Of a stretch of 64,000 nucleotides of DNA, positions 2,976 to 34,138 are shown one piece after another. The first letter of the stretch is position 1. Each line of letters starts with the position of its first letter. A model generated the notes under the pieces. That model saw only the letters and a program-made list of their open reading frames with translations. It made no database searches and was not told the origin of the DNA. The DNA lies in the NCBI RefSeq assembly GCF_001050275.1, contig NZ_BBYA01000009.1, positions 372,001 to 436,000 on the forward strand. The letters are read 5' to 3'. Source of the stretch: Leptolinea tardivitalis (GTDB taxonomy: Bacteria > Chloroflexota > Anaerolineae > Anaerolineales > Anaerolineaceae). The translations under genes and the position numbers were made by a program.

Positions 2976-3178
2976 GAAGAGGTATGGATATCAATGTTTG
3001 TAATTCACAAAAATAAACCATCAGTTGGCATTTTGAATACATGAAAATTTCAATTTTTGAATTTTTGGATAATATGAAGAATTCACCTTAAAGAAAACTT
3101 TTTTATAACTAGCCTTATTGGAAAATGAAATGAATTCGCAAATTAAAGTACATAAATATGTATTTTTGTATGTACTGT

Positions 3179-4039
3179 TTATCCATCAAGTATTGATATC
3201 TCAGAGTATTCAGCGGCAAATAATGAAGAATTTTGAGAAATCATATATATGAAAAATAAAAAAATCAATCCCAATATTGACCAACACCAATATAAATAGC
3301 TGAACTTAATAGATTTATTTGATAATGCTATCTTTTTTGCTGCACTAACTTGGGAAAATAGTCTATTTATTTCAGAGCGATTTTCCTTCATTCTTAAATG
3401 AATAAATTCCGCATCCTCAATAAGGATTAACTTGCCTTTATAGTTCACTTGGTATGAGAATTCAATATCTTGAAAGGCCGATAATTGTTCATTAAAACGG
3501 CAATCGATTATGTAGTCTCTTCTCCACCACATGCAACAGCCCCATAAAGCTTGTACTTCTTTTGGATAAATGGAAACATCTGGAAAATTAAAAAAGCCTG
3601 ATTTCAATTGGTTGGAAGTTCCATCTTTTGTTGATATTGATAATCCAAAGAATTTTCTGTATATATGTAATATGGTTGGAGTTTTTTGGTAATTTACAAC
3701 TCTTCCTCCAATACCAATTATCGAGTTTGAAGTCGAAAAAATATCTATTATTTTCTTTACATGATCTTTTTGCAGTATGGTGTCATCATCAAGAAATCCA
3801 ATAATTTCTGCAGTGCTGTTACTCAATCCAAGATTTCTTTGATAGGAAATATTCTCCCTTAATGCCCCAATAAAACGAATTCGCGGATGATATATATTGA
3901 TATTTGACAGAAACGGATGATTAATTGGGAGAACGACAATGATAGATACTTCTTCAGGTAAGATATTTAATAATCTATTTAAACATGCTTTAATTGTATC
4001 TGATGAACGATTTGAACAAATTATGATATCAATTTTCAT
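3179..4039 (-). CDS. Family 2 glycosyltransferase (AT-rich island)
   Basis: 286 residues. The N-terminal GT-A fold begins MKIDIIICSNRSSDTIKACL and carries the nucleotide-sugar and metal motif as GFLDDDTIL (DDD near residue 91). The acceptor-side region has LWGCCMWWRRD and FQDIEFSYQ, the ED-type loop of family 2 enzymes. A hydrophobic segment near residues 248-267 may anchor it in the membrane. It is the last gene of a four-gene AT-rich operon and starts 2 nt after the nucleotidyltransferase stop. Donor and acceptor are unknown. Its base composition differs sharply from the flanking azl and rib genes. Confidence 0.8.
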   Translation of the reverse strand: MKIDIIICSNRSSDTIKACLNRLLNILPEEVSIIVVLPINHPFLSNINIYHPRIRFIGALRENISYQRNLGLSNSTAEIIGFLDDDTILQKDHVKKIIDIFSTSNSIIGIGGRVVNYQKTPTILHIYRKFFGLSISTKDGTSNQLKSGFFNFPDVSIYPKEVQALWGCCMWWRRDYIIDCRFNEQLSAFQDIEFSYQVNYKGKLILIEDAEFIHLRMKENRSEINRLFSQVSAAKKIALSNKSIKFSYLYWCWSILGLIFLFFIYMISQNSSLFAAEYSEISILDG

Positions 4040-4041
4040 TA

Positions 4042-4995
4042 TTATCTCAATGATGGAATTTTCTCAAGTTGAATAACAGGATCATCAATAATAATTACCT
4101 TCTTTTTACAAAGAGAGGATGAGCAATAGAAACCATATCCTTTTATTCCTTCACCCTTATGTATTTCACCTCTGGCTGCGGTTCCTAAAATAATAAAATG
4201 ATATTTTGCACCTTCGATAATTGTTGGAGCAAAAAAGGAAAAATCATCGTTTATTACAATGTCTTCAAAAGAAACAACAATTGTTTCATTTTCAAATTCT
4301 ATAGAGTCCAAAAAATTGAACATTTCTTTGCTAGGTGGAAAGAATAAATCAACCTCAATATTTTTTCTTAATATTGCTTTCAATGGCCAAGTATTTCTAT
4401 ATTTAATATTAAGAAATTTATCTGTGATTAAACTAGCAATTCTTTTTGTATTCTCCAAAGATGTATCGATAACGAGATCAATATCTGTCATAGGTGAATA
4501 AATTCTAGGATCGATGAGAAGAGATCCTGTTATTCCAATTTTTTCAGTATTAAGTCTTAACTCATCATGGATTATTCTCATTGTCTGAGAAAAAGATTCA
4601 TTAGTAAGTAATTTTTTAAAACCATCATAAGGATCGAAAATATTATGAACATATTTCCAATTAATCTTGCATAGATGTCGTCTTAAAAAATGATTTTCTT
4701 CAGGTAATTTAAGTATTTTTAAGCAATAGTCGCGTGAGAGTATTGTTGGGCAAATGATCTTTTGATTATTTGAATATATATACCGTAAATCCCACCATGT
4801 TTTATCTAATAAATTAATCCTTCTTGGAAAAGGGTAAAAATCATCTTCGGATAATAATTCTAAATAAAGCGGTTTTCCCCAGAAAAACATTTTATTATCT
4901 AACATCTTTGGATAAGGAGAAAAGAAAAGACAGTATCGTTTTTGAAAATGACATAATATGTAAGAAAAAGGATTAATTTCAAATTGCTTAACCAA
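4042..4995 (-). CDS. Pol-beta-type nucleotidyltransferase domain protein
   Basis: 317 residues. Around residue 165 lies GITGSLLIDP ... SPMTDIDLVID, matching the nucleotidyltransferase signature G-S ... D-x-D; a third acidic position is in IEVDLFF. The first 130 residues have no recognisable domain. The C-terminus (GEGIKGYGFYCSSSLCKKK) has two Cys and may be a separate small domain. Such enzymes add a nucleotide to a protein, RNA or small molecule; the target here cannot be read. Its start overlaps the end of the radical SAM gene by 8 nt and the glycosyltransferase follows at once, so the three are probably made together. Confidence 0.7.
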   Translation of the reverse strand: MVKQFEINPFSYILCHFQKRYCLFFSPYPKMLDNKMFFWGKPLYLELLSEDDFYPFPRRINLLDKTWWDLRYIYSNNQKIICPTILSRDYCLKILKLPEENHFLRRHLCKINWKYVHNIFDPYDGFKKLLTNESFSQTMRIIHDELRLNTEKIGITGSLLIDPRIYSPMTDIDLVIDTSLENTKRIASLITDKFLNIKYRNTWPLKAILRKNIEVDLFFPPSKEMFNFLDSIEFENETIVVSFEDIVINDDFSFFAPTIIEGAKYHFIILGTAARGEIHKGEGIKGYGFYCSSSLCKKKVIIIDDPVIQLEKIPSLR

Positions 4996-5896
4996 TGAAT
5001 ACCTTCCTATGTTCAGTAATTCTCTGAGAAATAAATCTCTTTATTTGAACAACATCGTGGATTTTCGGGCCTTTTTTTTCAGCCCATATAAAACCATCTG
5101 GTTCAATTCTGAAATAACCTCGAAGATATTCATTTAAATTAACATTTCTCATTTGTCCAGGTATATGAATTGTGACATTTCCGTTTTCTGATAATTTTTT
5201 TGCCAGATCCCTTATATAAATTTGATTCAATACTTGATTATCTAATTCTCTTCCTCTTCCTATTTGGGTGATTGAGCTGAGGCGAATTTTCTTTACACCC
5301 ATTTGAACTATCTTTTGTAGGAATGTACTAGCTTTTTCTACATCATTATTCAGTAATAAATTACACCCAACATTAATTCCTGTATCGATATATTTATTAA
5401 TATTCTCTTCAATTAATTCCATGGAATCCTTGCTAAGAGTATTACTCTTATGACTTTTATCATCAAATCCATGGAGTGAGATATCAATCCAATCTACCAG
5501 ATTTGAACAATCTATGAATTTACTTCCATTTGTTGCCAAGACAATAATTCGTTCTCTCTTTTTTAATTTTTCGAGTAGCCATTTGATTTTCCAAAAATAA
5601 GTTGGTTCTCCCCCAGAAATGACAATTCTAGGAATTGTTATTTTTTCACAAAAATTAATTAACGATCCTAGATTGTCTTCGTTTATCCAGCTCCCATTTG
5701 TATTTGATTCTGCAAGGCAATATGGGCATGAATAATTACACCAATTTCCGATGCGTAAACAGATAGATAGGATATCGTATTCAGGAATACATAGATTTTT
5801 TTCATCTTTCGTATAATAGAAAGTATCCTTTTCAAAAGAGTAATAAATAGGTTCGTCATTCTCAGATGGAAAAAGACTCATCGACAGCATATTCAA
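4988..5896 (-). CDS. Radical SAM enzyme (AT-rich island)
   Basis: 302 residues. CNYSCPYC (CxxxCxxC, about residues 53-60) is the iron-sulfur site of radical SAM proteins, and SGGEPTYFW about 45 residues later is the SAM-binding GGEP motif. The rest fits a partial TIM barrel, with strands seen at IVLATNGS, WIDISLHG and GCNLLLN. No C-terminal Cys cluster of the SPASM type is present, so no extra clusters are expected. The product and substrate are unknown. It overlaps the membrane-protein gene by 35 nt and the nucleotidyltransferase gene by 8 nt. Confidence 0.85.
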   Translation of the reverse strand: MNMLSMSLFPSENDEPIYYSFEKDTFYYTKDEKNLCIPEYDILSICLRIGNWCNYSCPYCLAESNTNGSWINEDNLGSLINFCEKITIPRIVISGGEPTYFWKIKWLLEKLKKRERIIVLATNGSKFIDCSNLVDWIDISLHGFDDKSHKSNTLSKDSMELIEENINKYIDTGINVGCNLLLNNDVEKASTFLQKIVQMGVKKIRLSSITQIGRGRELDNQVLNQIYIRDLAKKLSENGNVTIHIPGQMRNVNLNEYLRGYFRIEPDGFIWAEKKGPKIHDVVQIKRFISQRITEHRKVFIG

Positions 5897-6545
5897 AAGA
5901 GCTCCTAAGCAGTTCCTGATTCTCGATTTTATATGTTTCGATTAATAGCAATCTATTCTGTCTTGTTGTAATCCAAATTAAAATAAGTATTAATAAATAG
6001 GAAAAATAAAAATATAGTGGGGTTGTATTAGAGCCAAACCTAAGGATTTTATATATTCCTAATCTCCAATCACCTGAAACAAAGCCAATAATCATATGAA
6101 TAAAAAAAGATATAAGCATTGCAGTGATTAGGTTGTACTCTATGTTAAGATGAGTCCAGATTTCATTTCGGAATTCCCTTGATTCTTTTTGTATATCTTC
6201 TGTTTTTTTTAATTTTTCCATTCTGGTTCGGAACAAATTTATTTGGCTTTGCAATTCATTGGTTATTATCCGGCTTTTTTCGAAAACATTGTTTTTATCA
6301 ATTGCATAACTAAAAATACCCAATTTGGGTGAGATTCTGAAGAAGAACATTGGGAAAATATTTATTAAATACCCAAAGGGTAATATCCCACCTATGATCA
6401 ATGTAGTAATTGTGTCGGAATAAACTGGATTTGTTAAAAAATGCCTTATTCTTTCATAGATTGGTGCACTTAATGATATTGAAAACAGAAGTAAAAACGA
6501 CCATGAAAGAGAATATTTTGTTAATGTATCTGTTATTGAATTCAT
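5862..6545 (-). CDS. Membrane protein of unknown function, first gene of the AT-rich operon
   Basis: 227 residues with about four predicted membrane segments: LSWSFLLLFSISLSA, TLIIGGILPFGYLINIFPMFFF, LITAMLISFFIHMIIGF and FYFSYLLILILIWI. Between the second and third lies a charged helical stretch (ITNELQSQINLFRTRMEKLKK) that may be a cytoplasmic coiled coil. No family is recognised. AGGAGGG stands just before ATG 6545, a strong ribosome site. Its 3' end overlaps the radical SAM gene by 35 nt, so it belongs to the same unit and may anchor or export its product. Confidence 0.65.
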   Translation of the reverse strand: MNSITDTLTKYSLSWSFLLLFSISLSAPIYERIRHFLTNPVYSDTITTLIIGGILPFGYLINIFPMFFFRISPKLGIFSYAIDKNNVFEKSRIITNELQSQINLFRTRMEKLKKTEDIQKESREFRNEIWTHLNIEYNLITAMLISFFIHMIIGFVSGDWRLGIYKILRFGSNTTPLYFYFSYLLILILIWITTRQNRLLLIETYKIENQELLRSSFEYAVDESFSI

Positions 6546-6641
6546 TTTCCCTCCTAATACTGAAATTATATAATAATTTCTACTTCTAAAATCTATTACT
6601 ATATTTATGTAAAGGCATAGAAATCATTTTCTTAATAATTC

Positions 6642-6746
6642 CTAAATGGTAATACATGAAATTCCGAATGGTCGCAATCCATCTTCAAATGTGATGACTA
6701 CTTTACCTTTTTTAATGACAAAAAAGGCAGCACAATAAGTGCCCAT
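6642..6746 (-). CDS. Short ORF upstream of the radical SAM operon, possible peptide gene
   Basis: A 34-codon frame runs from ATG 6746 to TAG 6642. It is preceded by AAAAAGGATCCT, giving an AAGGA ribosome site about 5 nt from ATG. The peptide begins MGTYCAAFFVIKKGK and ends FGISCITI, with two Cys at residues 5 and 31. It lies about 95 nt ahead of the first operon gene, on the same strand and with the same AT-rich composition. Radical SAM operons sometimes encode a small peptide substrate in this position, but the peptide has no recognised leader motif. It may equally be a fragment of a decayed gene. Confidence 0.35.
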   Translation of the reverse strand: MGTYCAAFFVIKKGKVVITFEDGLRPFGISCITI

Positions 6747-6888
6747 AGGATCCTTTTTAAATTACTTCTTTATGAAAAATTCACATTTACATTAAGCGAT
6801 TGATATGTTTACTATTTAATGAACATAAAATCTCGGATAATCCCCAAATGCATATGGTGTTAAAAATGATAGTTAAAAAGTCAAATAT

Positions 6889-6949
6889 AGGGATTTGAAA
6901 TCCCTGTATTTAATCCAAAAACAGGGAATAACACTCCCTGTTTTTGGAT
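6889..6949. repeat. Two adjacent palindromes sharing a CAGGGA/TCCCTG core
   Basis: AGGGATTT (6889-6896) and AAATCCCT (6898-6905) form an 8-bp palindrome around one base. A perfect 15-bp inverted repeat follows: ATCCAAAAACAGGGA at 6913-6927 with TCCCTGTTTTTGGAT at 6935-6949, separated by 7 nt. It stands between divergent genes, where no terminator is needed, so it may be an insertion remnant, an island junction or a regulatory site. Confidence 0.7.
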
Positions 6950-6973
6950 ATTGACGAAAATCCGATGCTGGAA

Positions 6974-7003
6974 TTGTCTTCGCATTTTCAATTGTGCTAT
7001 AAT
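6974..7003 (+). promoter_or_regulatory. Promoter of the rib operon
   Basis: TTGTCT at 6974-6979 and a perfect TATAAT at 6998-7003 are separated by 18 nt. The expected start near 7010 lies only a few bases before the riboswitch P1 stem. Confidence 0.7.
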
Positions 7004-7016
7004 TCACAAAATTCAA

Positions 7017-7150
7017 TTTCCTTCGGGGCAGGGTGCGAGGTAACAACCTCAATTCCCGATCGGTGGTGATAACCCACGAGCGCAGAACACCGCGCGCATG
7101 ACCTGGTGAAATTCCAGGGTCGACGGTACAGTCCGGATGCAAGAAGGAAA
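7017..7150 (+). promoter_or_regulatory. FMN riboswitch (RFN element)
   Basis: Conserved RFN segments occur in order: TTCGGGGCAGGGT, AATTCCCGATCGGTGGTGATAACCCACGAGCG, TGACCTGGTGAAATTCCAGGGTCGACGGTACAGTCCGGATGCAAGAAGG (each is a contiguous part of 7021-7148). The P1 stem is TTTCCTTC (7017-7024) with GAAGGAAA (7143-7150). An extra hairpin arm lies at about 7035-7050 (GCGAGGTAACAACCTC). In known systems FMN binding turns off riboflavin synthesis or uptake genes. Here a terminator follows 40 nt downstream and the controlled operon is an ABC transporter, so riboflavin uptake is the expected target. Confidence 0.95.
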
Positions 7151-7189
7151 CACTGGCAACACAAGTCAGCATTCCGCCAGTCACCCTAC

Positions 7190-7220
7190 CCCGAAAACCA
7201 TCTCGTTTTTCGGGTTTTTT
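7190..7220 (+). terminator. Riboswitch expression-platform terminator
   Basis: CCCGAAAAC at 7190-7198 pairs with GTTTTTCGGG at 7205-7214 (one T bulged) and is followed by six T at 7215-7220. It sits between the FMN aptamer and the ribX start (7226), so FMN probably acts by premature termination of transcription. Confidence 0.85.
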
Positions 7221-7225
7221 GTTTT

Positions 7226-8053
7226 ATGGCTGCCATCTATCCATCACCCAAACGATCTCCATCACAGGCGGTACGCACAGCCAAACAGCGCCGCTGGTTT
7301 ATGCCGGTGTCGCTGCTGGGGGGGCTGCTCCTCTGGCAGATTATTGTGACGGTCTCCGGTCTGCCGGCGTTTATCCTGCCTTCGCCGGTGGAGGTGGCTG
7401 TGCGCTTCTGGGATATGCTCACCGGCGGCCGCCTGCTGCTGCATACAGCTGTCACATTGAGTGAACTGCTGCTAGGCCTGCTGGCAGGCGGCGGCGCCGC
7501 CACCCTCACCGGGTATGCGCTGGCCAAATCCCCTTCGGCAGAACGGCTGATGTCACCCTACCTGATTGCCAGCCAGGCTGTACCGGTGGCCGCCATCGCC
7601 CCACTGCTGGTCATCTGGTTTGGACCGGGCATGGCTTCCAAGGTACTCATTTGCGGGTTGACTGTCTTCTTCCCGGTGCTCATCAATACCATTGTCAGCC
7701 TGCGGGGTGTTCCCGAGAACCTGCGGGATGTGATGCGCGCCATGCGCGCCACCCCGCGTCAGACGCTGCTTCTGTTGGAAATCCCTGCCGCACTGCCGGT
7801 GTATCTGGCCGGTCTGCGTGTGGGCGCCACCCTGTCAGTCATTGGAGCGGTGGTCGGCGAGCTGGTTGGTTCCAACCAGGGGCTGGGATTTCTCATCAAC
7901 CTGGGACGCGGTCAGTACGATACCGCCCTGGTATTTGTGGCCGTTTTTGGCCTGGTCACCCTCGCCATCCTGCTATATGGCACTGTCTTGCTTGTGGAAA
8001 GACGCTGCCTGGCCTGGCAGTCAGACCCGGATAAAGAAACTTCTCTTCTGTAA
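7226..8053 (+). CDS. ribX: Riboflavin ABC transporter, permease
   Basis: About 275 residues with six predicted membrane segments, of the BPD_transp_1 (SsuC/TauC-like) type. The EAA-type cytoplasmic loop is visible as LRDVMRAMRATPRQTLLLLEIPAALP. The upstream FMN riboswitch and the adjacent NMT1-like binding protein and ATPase match the RibXY(Z) riboflavin uptake system known from Chloroflexota (family knowledge). ATG 7226 is chosen because the earlier in-frame ATG (7106) lies inside the riboswitch. No Shine-Dalgarno site is seen, since the start follows the terminator T-run directly. Confidence 0.85.
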   Translation: MAAIYPSPKRSPSQAVRTAKQRRWFMPVSLLGGLLLWQIIVTVSGLPAFILPSPVEVAVRFWDMLTGGRLLLHTAVTLSELLLGLLAGGGAATLTGYALAKSPSAERLMSPYLIASQAVPVAAIAPLLVIWFGPGMASKVLICGLTVFFPVLINTIVSLRGVPENLRDVMRAMRATPRQTLLLLEIPAALPVYLAGLRVGATLSVIGAVVGELVGSNQGLGFLINLGRGQYDTALVFVAVFGLVTLAILLYGTVLLVERRCLAWQSDPDKETSLL

Positions 8054-8065
8054 AGGTCAATCATT

Positions 8066-9064
8066 ATGAAACACAATTCTCTCAAATTTGGCTTTCTGGC
8101 TTTGATCCTGATCTTATCTGCCTGTAGGACTGGCACACAGGCTCCAACCAAACCAACTGCGCTGACTCCCATCAAGCTGCCGGTGGGGTATATCCCCAAT
8201 ATTCAGTTTGCTCCGCTGTACGTGGCCATAGAAAAAGGTTATTTTAAGAATGAGGGGATTGATATCACCCTGGATTACAACATGGAGAACGATTCTGTGG
8301 CACTTCTGGGAGCCGGACAATTGCAATTTGCCATTGTTTCCGGCGAGCAGGTCCTACTGGGACGCGGAAAGGGTCTGCCGGTGGTCTACGCGGCGGCCTG
8401 GTATAACAATTACCCGGTGGGGGTGATTGTTGATCCGGCGAAAAATGTGACAAAACCGGCCGACCTGAAGGGTTTGACGATCGGTCTTCCCGGACCTTAC
8501 GGCGCCAACTACATTGGTCTGCGCGCCCTGCTGGCTGCCGGGGGCCTGACCGAGAACGATGTCAAATTGAGTTCGATCGGGTATACCCAGGCGGAAAACT
8601 TCATGACAAAAAAGGTGGATGCCGCCTCGATTTATGTGTCGAATGAACCCAATCTGCTGGAAAGCAAGGGGGTTCCTTTCACTTTGCTGAAAGTGTCTGA
8701 TTACACCAGTCTTGTGGCCAACGGTCTGGCCACCAATGAAACCACCCTGAAAGAGCACCCCGAACTGGTACGCGGGATGATAAGCGGGCTTTTGAAAGGA
8801 ATTGCCGATGCGGGAGCCAACCCGGAAGAAGCCTATGAAATAAGCAAGAAGTATATTGAAAACCTGGATAAAGCGGATACGACCGTTCAGAAAGCTGTGT
8901 TGAAATCGTCCATTGATTTCTGGAAGAGCCTTAAACCCGGATCCACCCAACCGGATGCCTGGGAGAATATGCAGAAACTGCTGTTGGATATGGGAATGCT
9001 CGATAAGCCTATCGACCTGACCAAAGCCTACACCAACGATTTCCTGCCGGTGCCAACAAAGTAA
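8066..9064 (+). CDS. ribY: Riboflavin ABC transporter, substrate-binding lipoprotein
   Basis: 332 residues. The signal peptide ends in a lipobox (ILSAC, Cys at about residue 19), so the protein is tethered outside the membrane. The mature part is an NMT1/THI5-like type 2 binding protein: VGYIPNIQFAPLYVAIEKGYF, then NDSVALLGAGQLQFAIVSGEQVL, then GLTIGLPGPYGANY. These proteins often bind thiamine precursors, but the FMN riboswitch points to riboflavin here. It lies 12 nt after ribX and 5 nt before the ATPase gene. Confidence 0.85.
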   Translation: MKHNSLKFGFLALILILSACRTGTQAPTKPTALTPIKLPVGYIPNIQFAPLYVAIEKGYFKNEGIDITLDYNMENDSVALLGAGQLQFAIVSGEQVLLGRGKGLPVVYAAAWYNNYPVGVIVDPAKNVTKPADLKGLTIGLPGPYGANYIGLRALLAAGGLTENDVKLSSIGYTQAENFMTKKVDAASIYVSNEPNLLESKGVPFTLLKVSDYTSLVANGLATNETTLKEHPELVRGMISGLLKGIADAGANPEEAYEISKKYIENLDKADTTVQKAVLKSSIDFWKSLKPGSTQPDAWENMQKLLLDMGMLDKPIDLTKAYTNDFLPVPTK

Positions 9065-9069
9065 ACCGT

Positions 9070-9864
9070 ATGTGCCCTGCCACTTTACTGCGTATTAAAA
9101 ATCTATCGGTCACCTTCCAGGATGGGAACGGCGGACTGGAAGCGCTGGATTCCGTCAACCTCGATCTGCCGGAGTGCCGTTTTGTGGCAGTGCTGGGTCC
9201 ATCGGGGAGCGGGAAAACAACCCTCCTGCGTATTATTGCCGGTCTGATCCAACCCACATCTGGAAGTCTGCAATTTAACACACCGGAGGGTAATCCGCCG
9301 CGTATTGGTCTGGTATTTCAGCAGGCAAATTTGATGCCCTGGCGTACAGCCATCCAGAATATCACCCTGCCGCTCGAAATGCAGGGAATATCTGAAAAGG
9401 ATGCCTGCGAACGAGCCCGAGGTTTTATCGACCTGGTGGGATTGCGGGGATTTGAAAACAGCTGGCCGCGTAATCTATCTGGCGGTATGGCGCAGCGGGT
9501 GGCGCTGGCGCGCGCGTTGATTCAAGAACCTGACCTTCTGCTGCTAGACGAACCCTTCGGGGCGCTGGATGCCCTTACCCGCGAACACATGGGCGCCGAG
9601 TTGCTGCGCATCTGGCAGGCACGCGAGACCACGGTGATGATGGTCACACATTCCATTTCGGAAGCCCTTCTGTTGGCTGACCGGGTGGTGGTTCTATCCG
9701 CTCGTCCGGGTCGGTTGGTACGCGAATTGGACGTTCCCTTCCCGCGCCCGCGAACGGACGAGATCCGTTATTCACCAGAATTTGTGGCGCTCTCGCATGA
9801 TTTACGGGCCAGTATTAAAGAAGAACCCGAACCCATACCGGTTGCCCGGAAACCGAAAAAATAA
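9070..9864 (+). CDS. ribZ: Riboflavin ABC transporter, ATP-binding protein
   Basis: 264 residues, a complete ABC ATPase. Walker A is GPSGSGKTT (about residues 44-52), the Q-loop is VFQQANLMPW, the signature is NLSGGMAQRVALARAL, Walker B is LLLLDEPFGALD, and the switch His is in MMVTHSISEA. It is of the SsuB/TauB type that pairs with NMT1-like binding proteins. It is third in the riboswitch-controlled operon and supplies the energy for uptake. The symbol follows the RibXYZ convention and is inferred from context. Confidence 0.85.
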   Translation: MCPATLLRIKNLSVTFQDGNGGLEALDSVNLDLPECRFVAVLGPSGSGKTTLLRIIAGLIQPTSGSLQFNTPEGNPPRIGLVFQQANLMPWRTAIQNITLPLEMQGISEKDACERARGFIDLVGLRGFENSWPRNLSGGMAQRVALARALIQEPDLLLLDEPFGALDALTREHMGAELLRIWQARETTVMMVTHSISEALLLADRVVVLSARPGRLVRELDVPFPRPRTDEIRYSPEFVALSHDLRASIKEEPEPIPVARKPKK

Positions 9865-26280: not shown

Positions 26281-27036
26281 ATGATTCACAAAACACGCAC
26301 TCTGGCGGGATTAATTCTCCTGTGTCTATTGCTGGCAGCCTGTGGAAAGGCTGAGTCAAAAGAATCGCAGGAAGCCACCAAAGCCGCTCAGGCACAATCG
26401 GTGTTGTTGACAGCTCAATCCAATGTCAACGCCATACTCACCCAGACAGCCGCCGCTAAAAAACCGACCACAGCTCCCCTGAAGCCCACCAATACACAGG
26501 CGGCTGCCGCCGTTATTCCCACCCTGGCAGCACCCACCCAGAAACCGGCGGTTGTCAACAATAACACCGGAACAGACAGTGCCGCTATGGCCAGTGAAAC
26601 AGTTCCAGATGGAACCACCTACACCCCCGGGAAAACCTTTACCAAAACCTGGCGGATAATGAATACCGGCACGGCAACCTGGTCAACAGATTACAAACTG
26701 GTGTTTGTAGAGGGTGACCAGATGGGTGCATCCGGCACTGAATACCGGATGCCCATTCCGGTGGATCCGGGAAAGATTATTGATCTTTCTGTTTCATTTA
26801 AGGCACCGGATGCTGTCGGAACATACCAGGGTTACTGGGCTATTAAAAACCCGAGCGGAAAAACATTCGGATTTGGATCCAATTCCAAATTCTGGGTGAA
26901 AATTGTTGTCAGCGCAGCTACACCCACAGTCACCGCTACTATCCCGGCTGCCACGGCGACCACAGTCGCCCCCACGGTTGCCCCAACAGCGGCACCAGAA
27001 GTTACTCAACAAACTACTCAAGAAACACCGAAATAA
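26281..27036 (+). CDS. Lipoprotein with NBR1-Ig-like domain
   Basis: 251 residues. The signal peptide ends LLLAAC, with Cys as the acylated residue. A Thr/Ala-rich linker (TAAAKKPTTAPLKPTNTQ) spans about 55-100. The domain TVPDGTTYTPGKTFTKTWRI (about 110-130) through GTATWSTDYKLV and GSNSKFWVKI is of the NBR1-Ig-like type, common in Chloroflexota surface proteins. A Thr/Pro/Ala tail follows. ATG 26281 is favoured over 26275 because AAGGAAA then stands 8 nt away. Confidence 0.85.
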   Translation: MIHKTRTLAGLILLCLLLAACGKAESKESQEATKAAQAQSVLLTAQSNVNAILTQTAAAKKPTTAPLKPTNTQAAAAVIPTLAAPTQKPAVVNNNTGTDSAAMASETVPDGTTYTPGKTFTKTWRIMNTGTATWSTDYKLVFVEGDQMGASGTEYRMPIPVDPGKIIDLSVSFKAPDAVGTYQGYWAIKNPSGKTFGFGSNSKFWVKIVVSAATPTVTATIPAATATTVAPTVAPTAAPEVTQQTTQETPK

Positions 27037-27067
27037 AATTGTTAGAAAAACACGCTTGCAGAATCTT

Positions 27068-27100
27068 CGGGATAACATATATGTGTTATCCCGTTTTTTT
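27068..27100 (+). terminator. Intrinsic terminator after the lipoprotein gene
   Basis: CGGGATAACA (27068-27077) pairs with TGTTATCCCG (27084-27093), loop TATATG, followed by seven T (27094-27100). It overlaps the stop of the convergent minus-strand gene. Confidence 0.9.
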
Positions 27101-27669
27101 TATACTATTTCGATTTCAATTTTTTCATTAATTTTTTTTGAAATATCTTGAAGAATAGATTTTTTCTCGAGTGTACTACTGTGAGTAATTATATAATATT
27201 GACCTAATCTATACTGGCTAGGACCATATCTCTTGTCTTTGTATAAACAAACTAATGGAATTTTATTTACTACAAAATTTAGTGACTTCACACGCTCAAC
27301 ACCGATTTTATTTATTGCATTTACAAATGATAAAGCCGCGGTTTTTTCTTTTATCTGTGTTCCGTCTGAAAAAGTGATTCGTAAACCTGTTTTCCCCTTT
27401 TTTTTAGCAAGTGGAATATGTCTTTCAATTTTTTTACTATTTACTCTTTGTCTTGTTGTAATATCAAATCCGCGATTCCATTCATCTCGCAGTTTTTCAA
27501 GTTTCTCACGAAATGTACTTAATTCTTTTCCTACACTACCGAGATTCCCTGCTTGAGAATAATCACCATTCTTAAAAAAATTTGCACCCTCATCATTTAA
27601 TTGTTCTATTACTAGTTGAATTTCATCCAGCATAAGCTCAAATGCAATATTAACCCCATCTTGATTCAT
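27100..27669 (-). CDS. AT-rich orphan protein of unknown function
   Basis: 189 residues. The N-terminal half is helical (ELMLDEIQLVIEQLNDEGANFF); the C-terminal half has LRITFSDGTQIKEKTAALSFVNAINKIG and YYIITHSSTLEKKS, resembling a small beta-alpha module I have seen in uncharacterised proteins near restriction loci, but no firm family can be named. Composition is much more AT-rich than the pyr operon and lipoprotein that flank it, so it looks acquired. It is separated by only 85 nt from the M48 gene, transcribed the same way. Confidence 0.6.
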   Translation of the reverse strand: MNQDGVNIAFELMLDEIQLVIEQLNDEGANFFKNGDYSQAGNLGSVGKELSTFREKLEKLRDEWNRGFDITTRQRVNSKKIERHIPLAKKKGKTGLRITFSDGTQIKEKTAALSFVNAINKIGVERVKSLNFVVNKIPLVCLYKDKRYGPSQYRLGQYYIITHSSTLEKKSILQDISKKINEKIEIEIV

Positions 27670-27754
27670 TTTTGCCCCTTTGATTTGAAAAATTTACATA
27701 ATAAATAATTACTCTTTGGGATTATACATTACTTATTTATTTTCCAGCTTAAGA

Positions 27755-28534
27755 CTATCTTTGGTAATCTTGCAGCGCTTTGATTCGTTTGGCAATCATC
27801 GGATGGTCACTCAACACTTCACCCAGCACATTTTCCAGCGAATCGTCTTCGCGTTCAATAACAGCCAGGGCACGTTTCAATCCTTCGGCGGTATTGATAT
27901 CGCCAACAGCCAGTTGAGCCAGGGCGGAAATACTCTTGAGGGTACTGCCGCAGGCAGCCCGCCCGGCGCGGTCAGCGCTGTATTCACAGGCCCGGTTCCA
28001 CCAGCGGAAGGCAAAGGTGAAGATGATGGCTGCACCCAATGATGACGGCATTCCTGCCATTCCGCCAAGCAGAGTATTGAGCCAGGTGTGACCGAATACA
28101 ATATGCCCCATCTCATGCCCGATGACGAATTTCAACTCATCGGCGTCCATGATTTGCAGCATAGGCTCATACAAAACAATCACTTTGGGTGAATCCAACC
28201 CGAAGGTATAGGCATTCACCTGCTGGGATGGCGCAATAAACATCTCAACCGGCTCGCACCCCAGGGTATAGCGACACTCCCTGACCATTTCACCCAGTTT
28301 ATCCAGCGTTTCATTCTCACCTGTTGGGTGGTCGACAGGAACGCGGATGGCCTGGCGCATCAATGTGCGGTGGTGATCCTGGTTTGCCTGATAGCTGAAC
28401 ATGACAAGCACTGCCAGAATGACGGGTATGACACAAACAGTCAGTCCGGTGGTAACCACCAGCACACCGCCCACCACCAGCAGGGTAGCCAGAAAGATGG
28501 GTGTTTCAGAGGGATAGCGAGCCGGCCGGTTCAT
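27755..28534 (-). CDS. M48-family metallopeptidase
   Basis: 259 residues. Two N-terminal hydrophobic segments (IFLATLLVVGGVLVVTTGL and ILAVLVMFSY) anchor it. The zinc motif HEMGH lies in FVIGHEMGHIVFGH, and a third ligand is expected in the NRACEYSADRAG helix. Overlaps pyrD stop by 4 nt, so it is the last gene of the pyrimidine operon, though no metabolic link is known. Such HtpX-like proteases clear damaged membrane proteins. Confidence 0.88.
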   Translation of the reverse strand: MNRPARYPSETPIFLATLLVVGGVLVVTTGLTVCVIPVILAVLVMFSYQANQDHHRTLMRQAIRVPVDHPTGENETLDKLGEMVRECRYTLGCEPVEMFIAPSQQVNAYTFGLDSPKVIVLYEPMLQIMDADELKFVIGHEMGHIVFGHTWLNTLLGGMAGMPSSLGAAIIFTFAFRWWNRACEYSADRAGRAACGSTLKSISALAQLAVGDINTAEGLKRALAVIEREDDSLENVLGEVLSDHPMIAKRIKALQDYQR

Positions 28535-33120: not shown

Positions 33121-33251
33121 GGTCTCTCTCCGGTAATAGACAAAAAAAGAGAGCCCGATTCAGGCTCTCTAATAAAAATAAAATATTGATCTCCGCCGGG
33201 AAACGACGTCATTGACTTTTGGTTTCGGAAATGCGGGGGATTTTTGTACAT
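33102..33251 (-). CDS. Putative leader peptide (pyrL-like) of the pyr operon
   Basis: A 49-codon frame starts at ATG 33251, about 4 nt after the predicted transcript start, and runs across a U-rich tract and the attenuator hairpin. It stops at 33102, 18 nt inside pyrC. The peptide begins MYKNPPHFRNQK. The arrangement (leader ORF through the pause tract and terminator, overlapping the first gene) mirrors E. coli pyrL-pyrBI. No family similarity is claimed for the peptide itself, which would act through its translation. Confidence 0.5.
   Translation of the reverse strand: MYKNPPHFRNQKSMTSFPGGDQYFIFIREPESGSLFLSITGERPCVHQG
33148..33170 (-). terminator. pyr operon attenuator
   Basis: On the minus strand AGAGAGCC pairs with GGCTCTCT around TGAATCG, followed by seven T (A at 33142-33148 on the plus strand). 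It lies within the leader ORF and 22 nt before pyrC. Just upstream on the minus strand is a U-rich tract (TATTTTATTTTTATT, 33171-33186). Confidence 0.85.
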
Positions 33252-33261
33252 GTCGTGCGCT

Positions 33262-33289
33262 ATTTTACAGGAAAAAAAGACCGTGTCAA
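33262..33289 (-). promoter_or_regulatory. pyr operon promoter
   Basis: Minus strand TTGACA (33289-33284) and TAAAAT (33267-33262) are 16 nt apart. Predicted start is near 33255, so the leader RNA is about 135 nt before pyrC and the leader ORF is nearly leaderless. Confidence 0.8.
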
Positions 33290-33343: not shown

Positions 33344-34138
33344 CTACCGGCAAAGGTCATCGTACAAATCCGGTCGTCTGCAGATGAAAAGGTCATTCTG
33401 ACGGGTCACATGCTTGTTGTCTGCCAGAGATAAATCAATGTCGACCACAGCAATTCCGGCGGCAGTGTCATCCATCTGTGTCAAAATGTCACCGGTGGGT
33501 GAAGTAATCTGTGACAGACCGGAGAAGGTCAGGTCGCGGTCAGTGCCAGTGCGGTTGGCCGTGGCAGTGAAGATGCGGTTCTCGATGGAACGGGTGAGCA
33601 TGGCCTTCTGGCACCAGGGAAGCACCAGGTTGGCTGGATGCAGAATGATCTGCGCTCCTCGGAGAGCCAGGCTGCGAGCCATTTCTGGGAAGAACCAATC
33701 GAAACAAATCATGATTCCCAGGTGGTGTCCGTGGTAATCCATTACGGGAGGTTTTTCGCTGCCGGGGACGAAAAAAGTAATTTCATTGGCGAACAGATGG
33801 GCTTTTCGATATAAACCGGTCAGACGGCCGTCAGCATAGACAACGGCGGAATTAAACAAAGTATCTCCGGACTTTTCACATAATCCCCCGGCCACCAGAC
33901 GTCCGGCTAATGACCAATCGCGCAGCAATGTGCAATACGGGCCGTTATCTGCTGCTTCGCTGGCAGACATGGCCTGTTCAATAGTCTCAAAGTTATAACC
34001 TGAATTGGCCAATTCTGGCAGAACCAGTATGTCCACTTTTGCCTGATACGCCTGGTCAAGCAAGTCAGCAACAGTGTTCAGATTAGCCTGGCAATCTGCC
34101 AATTTGAAATCCGCCTGGGCAACACCTACTCTAAGCAT
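33344..34138 (-). CDS. Carbon-nitrogen hydrolase (nitrilase superfamily)
   Basis: 264 residues. The catalytic triad is visible as Glu in LVLPELANSGY, Lys in GLYRKAHLF, and Cys in LGIMICFDWFFPE, with the usual alpha-beta-beta-alpha arrangement. Members hydrolyse omega-amides, carbamoyl-amino acids, or nitriles; the substrate is unknown. N-carbamoyl-beta-alanine or similar amidase activity is possible given the pyrimidine neighbours, but that is a guess. AAGGAGA precedes ATG 34138. The pyr operon behind it has its own promoter. Confidence 0.88.
   Translation of the reverse strand: MLRVGVAQADFKLADCQANLNTVADLLDQAYQAKVDILVLPELANSGYNFETIEQAMSASEAADNGPYCTLLRDWSLAGRLVAGGLCEKSGDTLFNSAVVYADGRLTGLYRKAHLFANEITFFVPGSEKPPVMDYHGHHLGIMICFDWFFPEMARSLALRGAQIILHPANLVLPWCQKAMLTRSIENRIFTATANRTGTDRDLTFSGLSQITSPTGDILTQMDDTAAGIAVVDIDLSLADNKHVTRQNDLFICRRPDLYDDLCR

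What the first reader, a model, noticed from the sequence alone, without database searches (positions are those of the whole stretch)
2976..6747. AT-rich operon of membrane protein, radical SAM, nucleotidyltransferase and glycosyltransferase
Four minus-strand genes overlap or abut (35 nt, 8 nt, 2 nt) and share a base composition far more AT-rich than the azl and rib genes on either side. The set TM protein + CxxxCxxC radical SAM + Pol-beta NTase (GS ... DID) + GT2 does not match any pathway I can name, and no mobility gene is left. It could make a modified peptide, nucleotide or surface glycan.
Basis: partly seen in the sequence, partly recalled or inferred. Interest (0 to 1): 0.75.

Follow-up and report, generated by a model that had tools for sequence, protein, structure and literature searches.

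The report
Orphan AT-rich cassette at defence hotspot
A foreign-looking block of four genes for an unnamed mix of enzymes sits in a chromosome spot where close relatives carry different anti-virus gene sets, so it may be an undescribed bacterial defence or cell-surface chemistry module, but no relative was found to prove it.

Summary
Four minus-strand genes (membrane protein 5862-6545, radical SAM 4988-5896, nucleotidyltransferase 4042-4995, GT2 3179-4039) overlap or abut as described, at about 29% GC against 48-63% in the flanks. Radical SAM and GT2 are secure at superfamily level; the nucleotidyltransferase rests on a motif and a weak profile match; the membrane protein matches no library.

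No related operon was found. Nucleotidyltransferase and membrane protein each occur in 1 of 400 phylum genomes (the own one); the radical SAM too at E 1e-10. Contig scans see close relatives only, and other phyla could not be searched sensitively.

The new fact is positional. Upstream of the FMN riboswitch, 3 of 4 same-genus genomes (own included) carry AT-rich DNA with different cargo: this operon, a DNA-methylase/NurA/HerA-like cassette, or an NgoMIV-type restriction-modification system. None of 38 other-genus sites does within 3 kb. Only the riboswitch-side border is shared, because an inversion breakpoint lies here, and our operon points the other way.

Best reading: an acquired accessory cassette, most likely phage defence in the broad sense (0.42), biochemistry untested. 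Surface-glycan and peptide/small-molecule chemistry remain live rivals.

The parts
2976..6991 (.). AT-rich island (about 29% GC) between azlD stop and FMN riboswitch leader
   Evidence: GC profile; homology to same-genus genomes stops at 2950-2971 and resumes at 6992-6994
5862..6545 (-). 227-aa membrane protein: hydrophobic stretches 45-69, 135-160, 174-202 over the threshold used, a weaker one near 12-30 seen by eye, around a charged stretch 71-134; no family
   Evidence: AGGAGG site upstream
4988..5896 (-). 302-aa radical SAM protein: CNYSCPYC at 53, GGEP at 95, last Cys at 178, so no C-terminal auxiliary-cluster cysteines; TTG start
   Evidence: Pfam PF04055 2.6e-15; the 25 NCBIfam matches shown are all below cut-off; PADLOC viperins; cysteines
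4042..4995 (-). 317-aa probable Pol-beta-type nucleotidyltransferase: GS at 157, TDID, then IEVDLF; extra N- and C-terminal regions of unknown kind; TTG start
   Evidence: motif and hhalign against PF01909-type proteins; no Pfam match at E 10, not hit by PF01909 search of the own genome at E 0.001
3179..4039 (-). 286-aa GT2 glycosyltransferase with DDD at 84, DxE at 191 and one C-terminal hydrophobic stretch (244-276)
   Evidence: Pfam PF00535 9.9e-12; motifs; hydrophobic stretch
6642..6746 (-). 34-aa ORF (MGTYCAAFF...) ahead of the operon, AAGGA run upstream; possible leader or precursor peptide, or gene remnant
   Evidence: no Pfam match at E 0.001; expression unknown
6913..6949 (.). perfect 15-nt inverted repeat with 7-nt loop between island and riboswitch
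   Evidence: no second copy in the own genome at E 0.1
7015..7152 (+). FMN riboswitch: right-hand border, the border shared with the cassettes of G408 and G438
   Evidence: Rfam RF00050, 92.9 bits
1894..2975 (+). azlC-azlD: left-hand border
   Evidence: Pfam PF03591 1.5e-40, PF05437 6.8e-24

Best explanation
A horizontally acquired, AT-rich accessory operon in a genus-level cargo hotspot upstream of an FMN riboswitch, most likely a phage-defence or conflict module of an undescribed type. Shown: compact operon, foreign composition, different AT-rich cargo upstream of the same riboswitch in sister genomes, superfamily of the radical SAM and GT2 proteins. Inferred: the radical SAM enzyme makes a radical modification on a small molecule, nucleotide or peptide; the nucleotidyltransferase transfers a nucleotide to that product or to a protein; the GT2 (C-terminal hydrophobic stretch) and the multi-pass protein act at the membrane, as effector or as surface-modifying step. 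Which product is made is not known.
For: Upstream of the same riboswitch G408 holds a D12 DNA methylase (PADLOC PD-Lambda-5_B 8.1e-93), NurA (Pfam 6.9e-6), a HerA-like ATPase (PADLOC 2.2e-13), an AAA protein (4.8e-5, below Pfam's cut-off) and an unknown; G438 holds an NgoMIV-type restriction enzyme (Pfam 1e-106), a DNA methylase (4.8e-25) and a DUF2726 protein (2.7e-25). 3 of 4 same-genus genomes, own included, are occupied; G453 is not. 0 of 38 other-genus sites show a 1-kb window below 36% GC in the first 3 kb. GC of our island (0.29) is like the G408 cassette (0.28-0.32 per kb). The radical SAM's only PADLOC matches at E 1 are viperin models (best 1.4e-14).
Against: Guilt by location only, and the location is shared on one side: the azlD border is not the partner of the riboswitch in G408, G438 or G453. 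Our operon reads away from the riboswitch, whereas the cassettes of G408 and G438 read towards it. G438's cargo is less AT-rich (0.34-0.40 per kb). The viperin match is no better than that to MoaA (1.3e-16) and far below NCBIfam's viperin cut-off (42.2 of 180 bits). A GT2 is not a usual defence gene (recalled). The 470-aa AT-rich gene beside azlD in G408 and the 301-aa gene beside its riboswitch match nothing. No homologue shows that the four genes travel together. Only four same-genus genomes are held.
Confidence: 0.42

Rival explanations
1. Surface-glycan modification cassette: the GT2, held at the membrane by its C-terminal hydrophobic stretch, adds a sugar to a lipid carrier or envelope polymer, the radical SAM alters the sugar, the nucleotidyltransferase activates or decorates it, the multi-pass protein helps at the membrane.
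For: GT2's best NCBIfam matches, all far below cut-off, are exopolysaccharide enzymes HpsE 3.1e-07 and HpsN 6.7e-07; plasmid matches include one annotated succinoglycan ExoM; two of four proteins have long hydrophobic stretches.
Against: None of the island's four main ORFs is a known flippase, polymerase or sugar-nucleotide enzyme, and there is one glycosyltransferase only. GT2 matches in plasmids are weak (48 records, best E 2e-7, at most 29.2% identity in the 20 rows listed). Pol-beta-fold enzymes are not the usual sugar-1-phosphate nucleotidyltransferases (recalled).
Confidence: 0.28
2. Small peptide or metabolite pathway: the radical SAM matures a peptide (the 34-aa ORF at 6642-6746 or one elsewhere) or a nucleoside, which is then nucleotidylated and glycosylated.
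For: Radical SAM matches SPASM peptide maturases weakly (StsB 4.9e-09, WgkB 1.1e-08, both far below cut-off); a 34-aa ORF with a ribosome-binding-like run lies just ahead of the operon.
Against: No leader-binding (PqqD-like) domain among Pfam matches of the four proteins, no exporter or protease among them, no cysteine after 178 for auxiliary clusters; the 34-aa ORF matches no Pfam family and may be a remnant.
Confidence: 0.2
3. Chance or decaying assembly of unrelated genes caught at a rearrangement breakpoint, with no joint function.
For: The island is at a breakpoint relative to the same-genus genomes, and no homologous operon was found.
Against: All four frames are open, overlap or abut, and share composition.
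Confidence: 0.1

Closest known systems
Prokaryotic viperins (pVip)
   Same: Radical SAM core with CxxxCxxC; PADLOC matches 1.4e-14 and 1.1e-13 over residues 45-276
   Different: 42.2 bits against NCBIfam cut-off 180; MoaA matches better; nucleotidyltransferase and GT2 partners are not part of that system as I recall it
MoaA-type radical SAM enzymes
   Same: Best NCBIfam match (TIGR02668 1.3e-16, residues 42-236)
   Different: 60.5 of 325.25 bits; no cysteine after residue 178, so MoaA's C-terminal cluster (recalled) cannot form
Minimal/Pol-beta nucleotidyltransferases (PF01909)
   Same: GS...DID...(D/E) motif; best hhalign score among the proteins compared
   Different: No Pfam match at E 10; not found by PF01909 in the own genome at E 0.001; 317 aa with unknown N- and C-terminal regions, where many members listed lie in frames under 200 aa
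Cassettes upstream of the same riboswitch in G408 (methylase/NurA/HerA-like) and G438 (NgoMIV-type restriction-modification)
   Same: Same riboswitch-side border, lower GC than the host, compact
   Different: No nuclease or methylase recognised in the window's cassette; opposite orientation to the riboswitch

Membership tests
Radical SAM superfamily | CxxxCxxC cluster motif and radical SAM profile | tested here: met
   PF04055 57.4 of 29.5 bits; CNYSCPYC at 53, GGEP at 95
Viperin (prokaryotic) | Score over NCBIfam NF038283 cut-off | tested here: not met
   42.2 of 180 bits
MoaA | Score over cut-off; second, C-terminal iron-sulphur cluster (recalled) | tested here: not met
   60.5 of 325.25 bits; no Cys after 178
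Pol-beta nucleotidyltransferase fold | GS-x(n)-DxD and a third acidic residue; profile similarity | tested here: inconclusive
   Motif present; strict form in 0 of 229 background ORFs, loose form in 2 of 229; hhalign P 0.0027 but probability only 11.2%, against at most 2.2% in 20 shuffles. No Pfam match. Model too poor to judge (pLDDT 33.8)
CBASS-type (CD-NTase) signalling | CD-NTase or known effector model in PADLOC | tested here: not met
   No PADLOC match for nucleotidyltransferase or membrane protein at E 1
GT2 glycosyltransferase | PF00535 over cut-off, DxD | tested here: met
   45.5 of 23.3 bits; DDD at 84
Ribosomal peptide (RiPP) maturation cluster | Precursor peptide plus recognition element and exporter | tested here: inconclusive
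   34-aa ORF only; no known domain
Anti-phage defence system | Protection against phage | not testable with these tools
   Only position: defence cargo upstream of the same riboswitch in two relatives

The most novel reading that the evidence does not exclude
A new type of defence system in which a viperin-like radical SAM enzyme and a Pol-beta nucleotidyltransferase together make an unusual nucleotide signal or chain terminator, read or acted on by the membrane proteins.
Probability: 0.12. Interest if true: 0.85.

Novelty: new variant of a known kind. Interest (0 to 1): 0.45.

Why it matters
If the module protects against phage, it would add radical chemistry coupled to nucleotide transfer and glycosylation to the known repertoire. 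Independently, the riboswitch-side site is a defined place in this genus (unnamed here; genomes carry handles only) where cargo can be read across strains, which makes the defence hypothesis directly testable by cloning each strain's cargo.

Tried and rejected
Homologue hunts that failed. Nucleotidyltransferase: 1 of 400 phylum genomes, own only; 3 of 147 family genomes at E 0.1, where the two others lie in unrelated ORFs (GntR-like regulator and dehydrogenase-like, names recalled); viral contigs none; plasmids none at 0.01, 1 record at E 10; phages none; genome contigs 40 pattern stretches, none confirmed. Radical SAM: 1 of 400 at 1e-10; 36 of 400 at 1e-5, where all matches except the window's own are 21-30% identical and lie in frames of 327-591 aa, which I take as generic radical SAM proteins; viral 7 stretches, none confirmed; genome contigs 62 stretches, none confirmed; plasmids none at 1e-5, 50 weak records at E 10, several listed rows MoaA; phages 1 record. 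PDB sequence searches gave nothing useful. Membrane protein: 1 of 400, viral none, plasmids none; not searched in phages or genome contigs. GT2: searched in plasmids only. All proteins were also compared with the loci held, without a new relative.

Thermus phage YS40_Isch, the one phage record: its radical SAM gene has a 317-aa neighbour, the same length as our nucleotidyltransferase; compared and rejected, no similarity. Priestia plasmid match at E 0.2 rejected: the annotated gene is 121 aa, and no radical SAM or glycosyltransferase is annotated in the stretches shown.

AlphaFold models from single sequences were too poor to use (pLDDT 33.8 and 47.3), so no fold search was run. A resemblance of the nucleotidyltransferase's ends to an archaeal family that I recall as COG1665 could not be tested; a paper search for that name found 0.

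Literature: eight searches of an open-licence library; one search used phylum and class names that I guessed. I read passages of PMC7159879 (it mentions a radical SAM domain thought to modify a peptide effector in a different conflict system) and saw only listings with starts of abstracts for the others. No listing described this four-gene set.

Caveats on my own tests. The Pol-beta motif patterns were written after seeing the protein, and the comparison profile was made from 21 of 30 family loci, kept because they showed exactly one ORF with the loose motif, so it leans to the motif. One of the 27 window control ORFs scored the same 11.2 and is presumably the nucleotidyltransferase itself; the next best was 0.9. 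The 41 other-genus sites were picked by hand from the listing (84 of 101 genomes had a match, list cut); 3 of the 41 were dropped for under 1 kb of upstream DNA, and 5 of the 38 kept reach less than 3 kb. Some of the 38 share a genus with one another. Farther than 3 kb some do have AT-rich DNA (L054, L065).

Full report
Observation. The window holds four minus-strand ORFs with the stated overlaps (35 nt, 8 nt, gap 2 nt). They lie in a stretch of about 29% GC running from the azlD stop codon (2975) to about 6992, just before an FMN riboswitch (7015-7152, RF00050, 92.9 bits). Flanking 500-base windows that do not straddle a border are 48-63% GC. In 104 kb of own chromosome only one other stretch, 26801-27900, has 1-kb windows under 36% GC. 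Flanking genes are AzlC/AzlD and an ABC transporter with an NMT1-like binding protein.

Proteins. The GT2 (PF00535, 45.5 of 23.3 bits) and radical SAM (PF04055, 57.4 of 29.5 bits) are secure at superfamily level. The radical SAM protein has CNYSCPYC at 53 and GGEP at 95, and no cysteine after 178. It reaches no curated subfamily among the 25 NCBIfam matches shown of 44: MoaA 60.5 of 325.25 bits, viperin 42.2 of 180 bits; PADLOC viperins at 1.4e-14. The nucleotidyltransferase has no Pfam match at E 10, and PF01909 finds another protein but not this one in the own genome; it does show GS (157), TDID and IEVDLF. Profile comparison with PF01909-type proteins from relatives aligned the GS...DIDL segment with P 0.0027, probability 11.2%; 20 shuffles reached at most 2.2%, and GT2, radical SAM and membrane protein 0.2-1.3%. 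I take the fold as likely, not proved. The membrane protein has three hydrophobic stretches over my threshold and a weaker N-terminal one by eye, around a charged segment, and matches nothing in Pfam at E 10.

Relatives. No related operon was found in the collections available. The nucleotidyltransferase was found only in the own genome among 400 phylum genomes, with no credible second match in 147 family genomes. The membrane protein: own only among 400. The radical SAM at 1e-10: own only among 400; at 1e-5, 36 of 400, all but the own one at 21-30% identity. Contig, plasmid and phage searches of these three gave no confirmed or convincing relative (not every collection was searched with every protein). 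The contig scans use exact short peptides from one query, so they see close relatives only, and other phyla could not be reached with the sensitive tool.

Site. Three same-genus genomes were compared with 104 kb of own DNA. Homology stops at 2950-2971 (azlD end) and resumes at 6992-6994. The order differs: in G408, G438 and G453 azlD faces sequence homologous to about 33182-33276, and in G408 and G438 the riboswitch side faces, across 6-9 kb, sequence homologous to 33345-33496. One inversion of 6992-33275 accounts for these junctions; G408 and G453 have further rearrangements (for example own 10729 onward is separated from own 6992-9817 in G408). So the island is at a breakpoint, and the border shared with relatives is the riboswitch side only.

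Upstream of that riboswitch G408 carries about 7 kb at 0.28-0.32 GC per kb with a D12 DNA methylase (PADLOC PD-Lambda-5_B 8.1e-93), NurA (6.9e-6), a HerA-like ATPase (2.2e-13), an AAA protein (4.8e-5, below cut-off) and a 301-aa unknown; G438 carries DNA of 0.34-0.40 GC per kb with an NgoMIV restriction enzyme (1e-106), DNA methylase and DUF2726 protein. Those genes read towards the riboswitch; ours read away from it. G408 also has a 470-aa AT-rich ORF of no known family beside azlD. G453 has no 1-kb window under 36% GC in the 37.7 kb held. So 3 of 4 same-genus genomes, own included, are occupied, with three different cargoes. In 38 other-genus sites with at least 1 kb of upstream DNA, none had such a window within 3 kb. 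At about 3-6 kb, G423 has an AT-rich block whose ORFs look like two DNA methylases and a restriction-type protein (read by eye, not profiled).

Reading. The simplest account is an acquired accessory cassette in a genus-level cargo hotspot. In the other two occupied genomes the recognisable cargo is DNA-directed defence. That makes phage defence the leading guess for this operon, at 0.42, with envelope-glycan (0.28) and peptide or small-molecule chemistry (0.20) as rivals. The three are not fully exclusive: a surface change can itself block phage. The bold reading, a viperin-like radical SAM plus nucleotidyltransferase making an unusual nucleotide, is not excluded, but the viperin similarity is no stronger than that to MoaA, so I give it 0.12.

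Limits. Function rests on position and superfamily; no homologous operon, no usable structure and no experiment supports it.

Noticed in passing
window 6992-33345: Inverted relative to same-genus genomes: one breakpoint at the island, the other between 33276 and 33345; G408 and G453 show further rearrangements.
   Followed up: partly
window 26801-27900: Second small AT-rich stretch (GC 0.367), inside a gap of the alignment to G408 (own 26852-27773), with a 189-aa minus-strand ORF (27100-27669).
   Followed up: no
L020:300-6997 (G408, riboswitch side): AT-rich five-gene cassette: D12 methylase, NurA, HerA-like ATPase, AAA protein and an unknown 301-aa protein; possible defence system in its own right.
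   Followed up: partly
L019:3844-5256 (G408, azlD side): 470-aa AT-rich ORF with no Pfam or PADLOC match beside azlD.
   Followed up: no
window 6642-6746, minus: 34-aa ORF with a ribosome-binding-like run ahead of the operon; leader, precursor peptide or remnant.
   Followed up: partly
L054:3276-6434 (G423): AT-rich block about 3-6 kb upstream of the riboswitch in another genus, with methylase-like and restriction-like ORFs read by eye.
   Followed up: no
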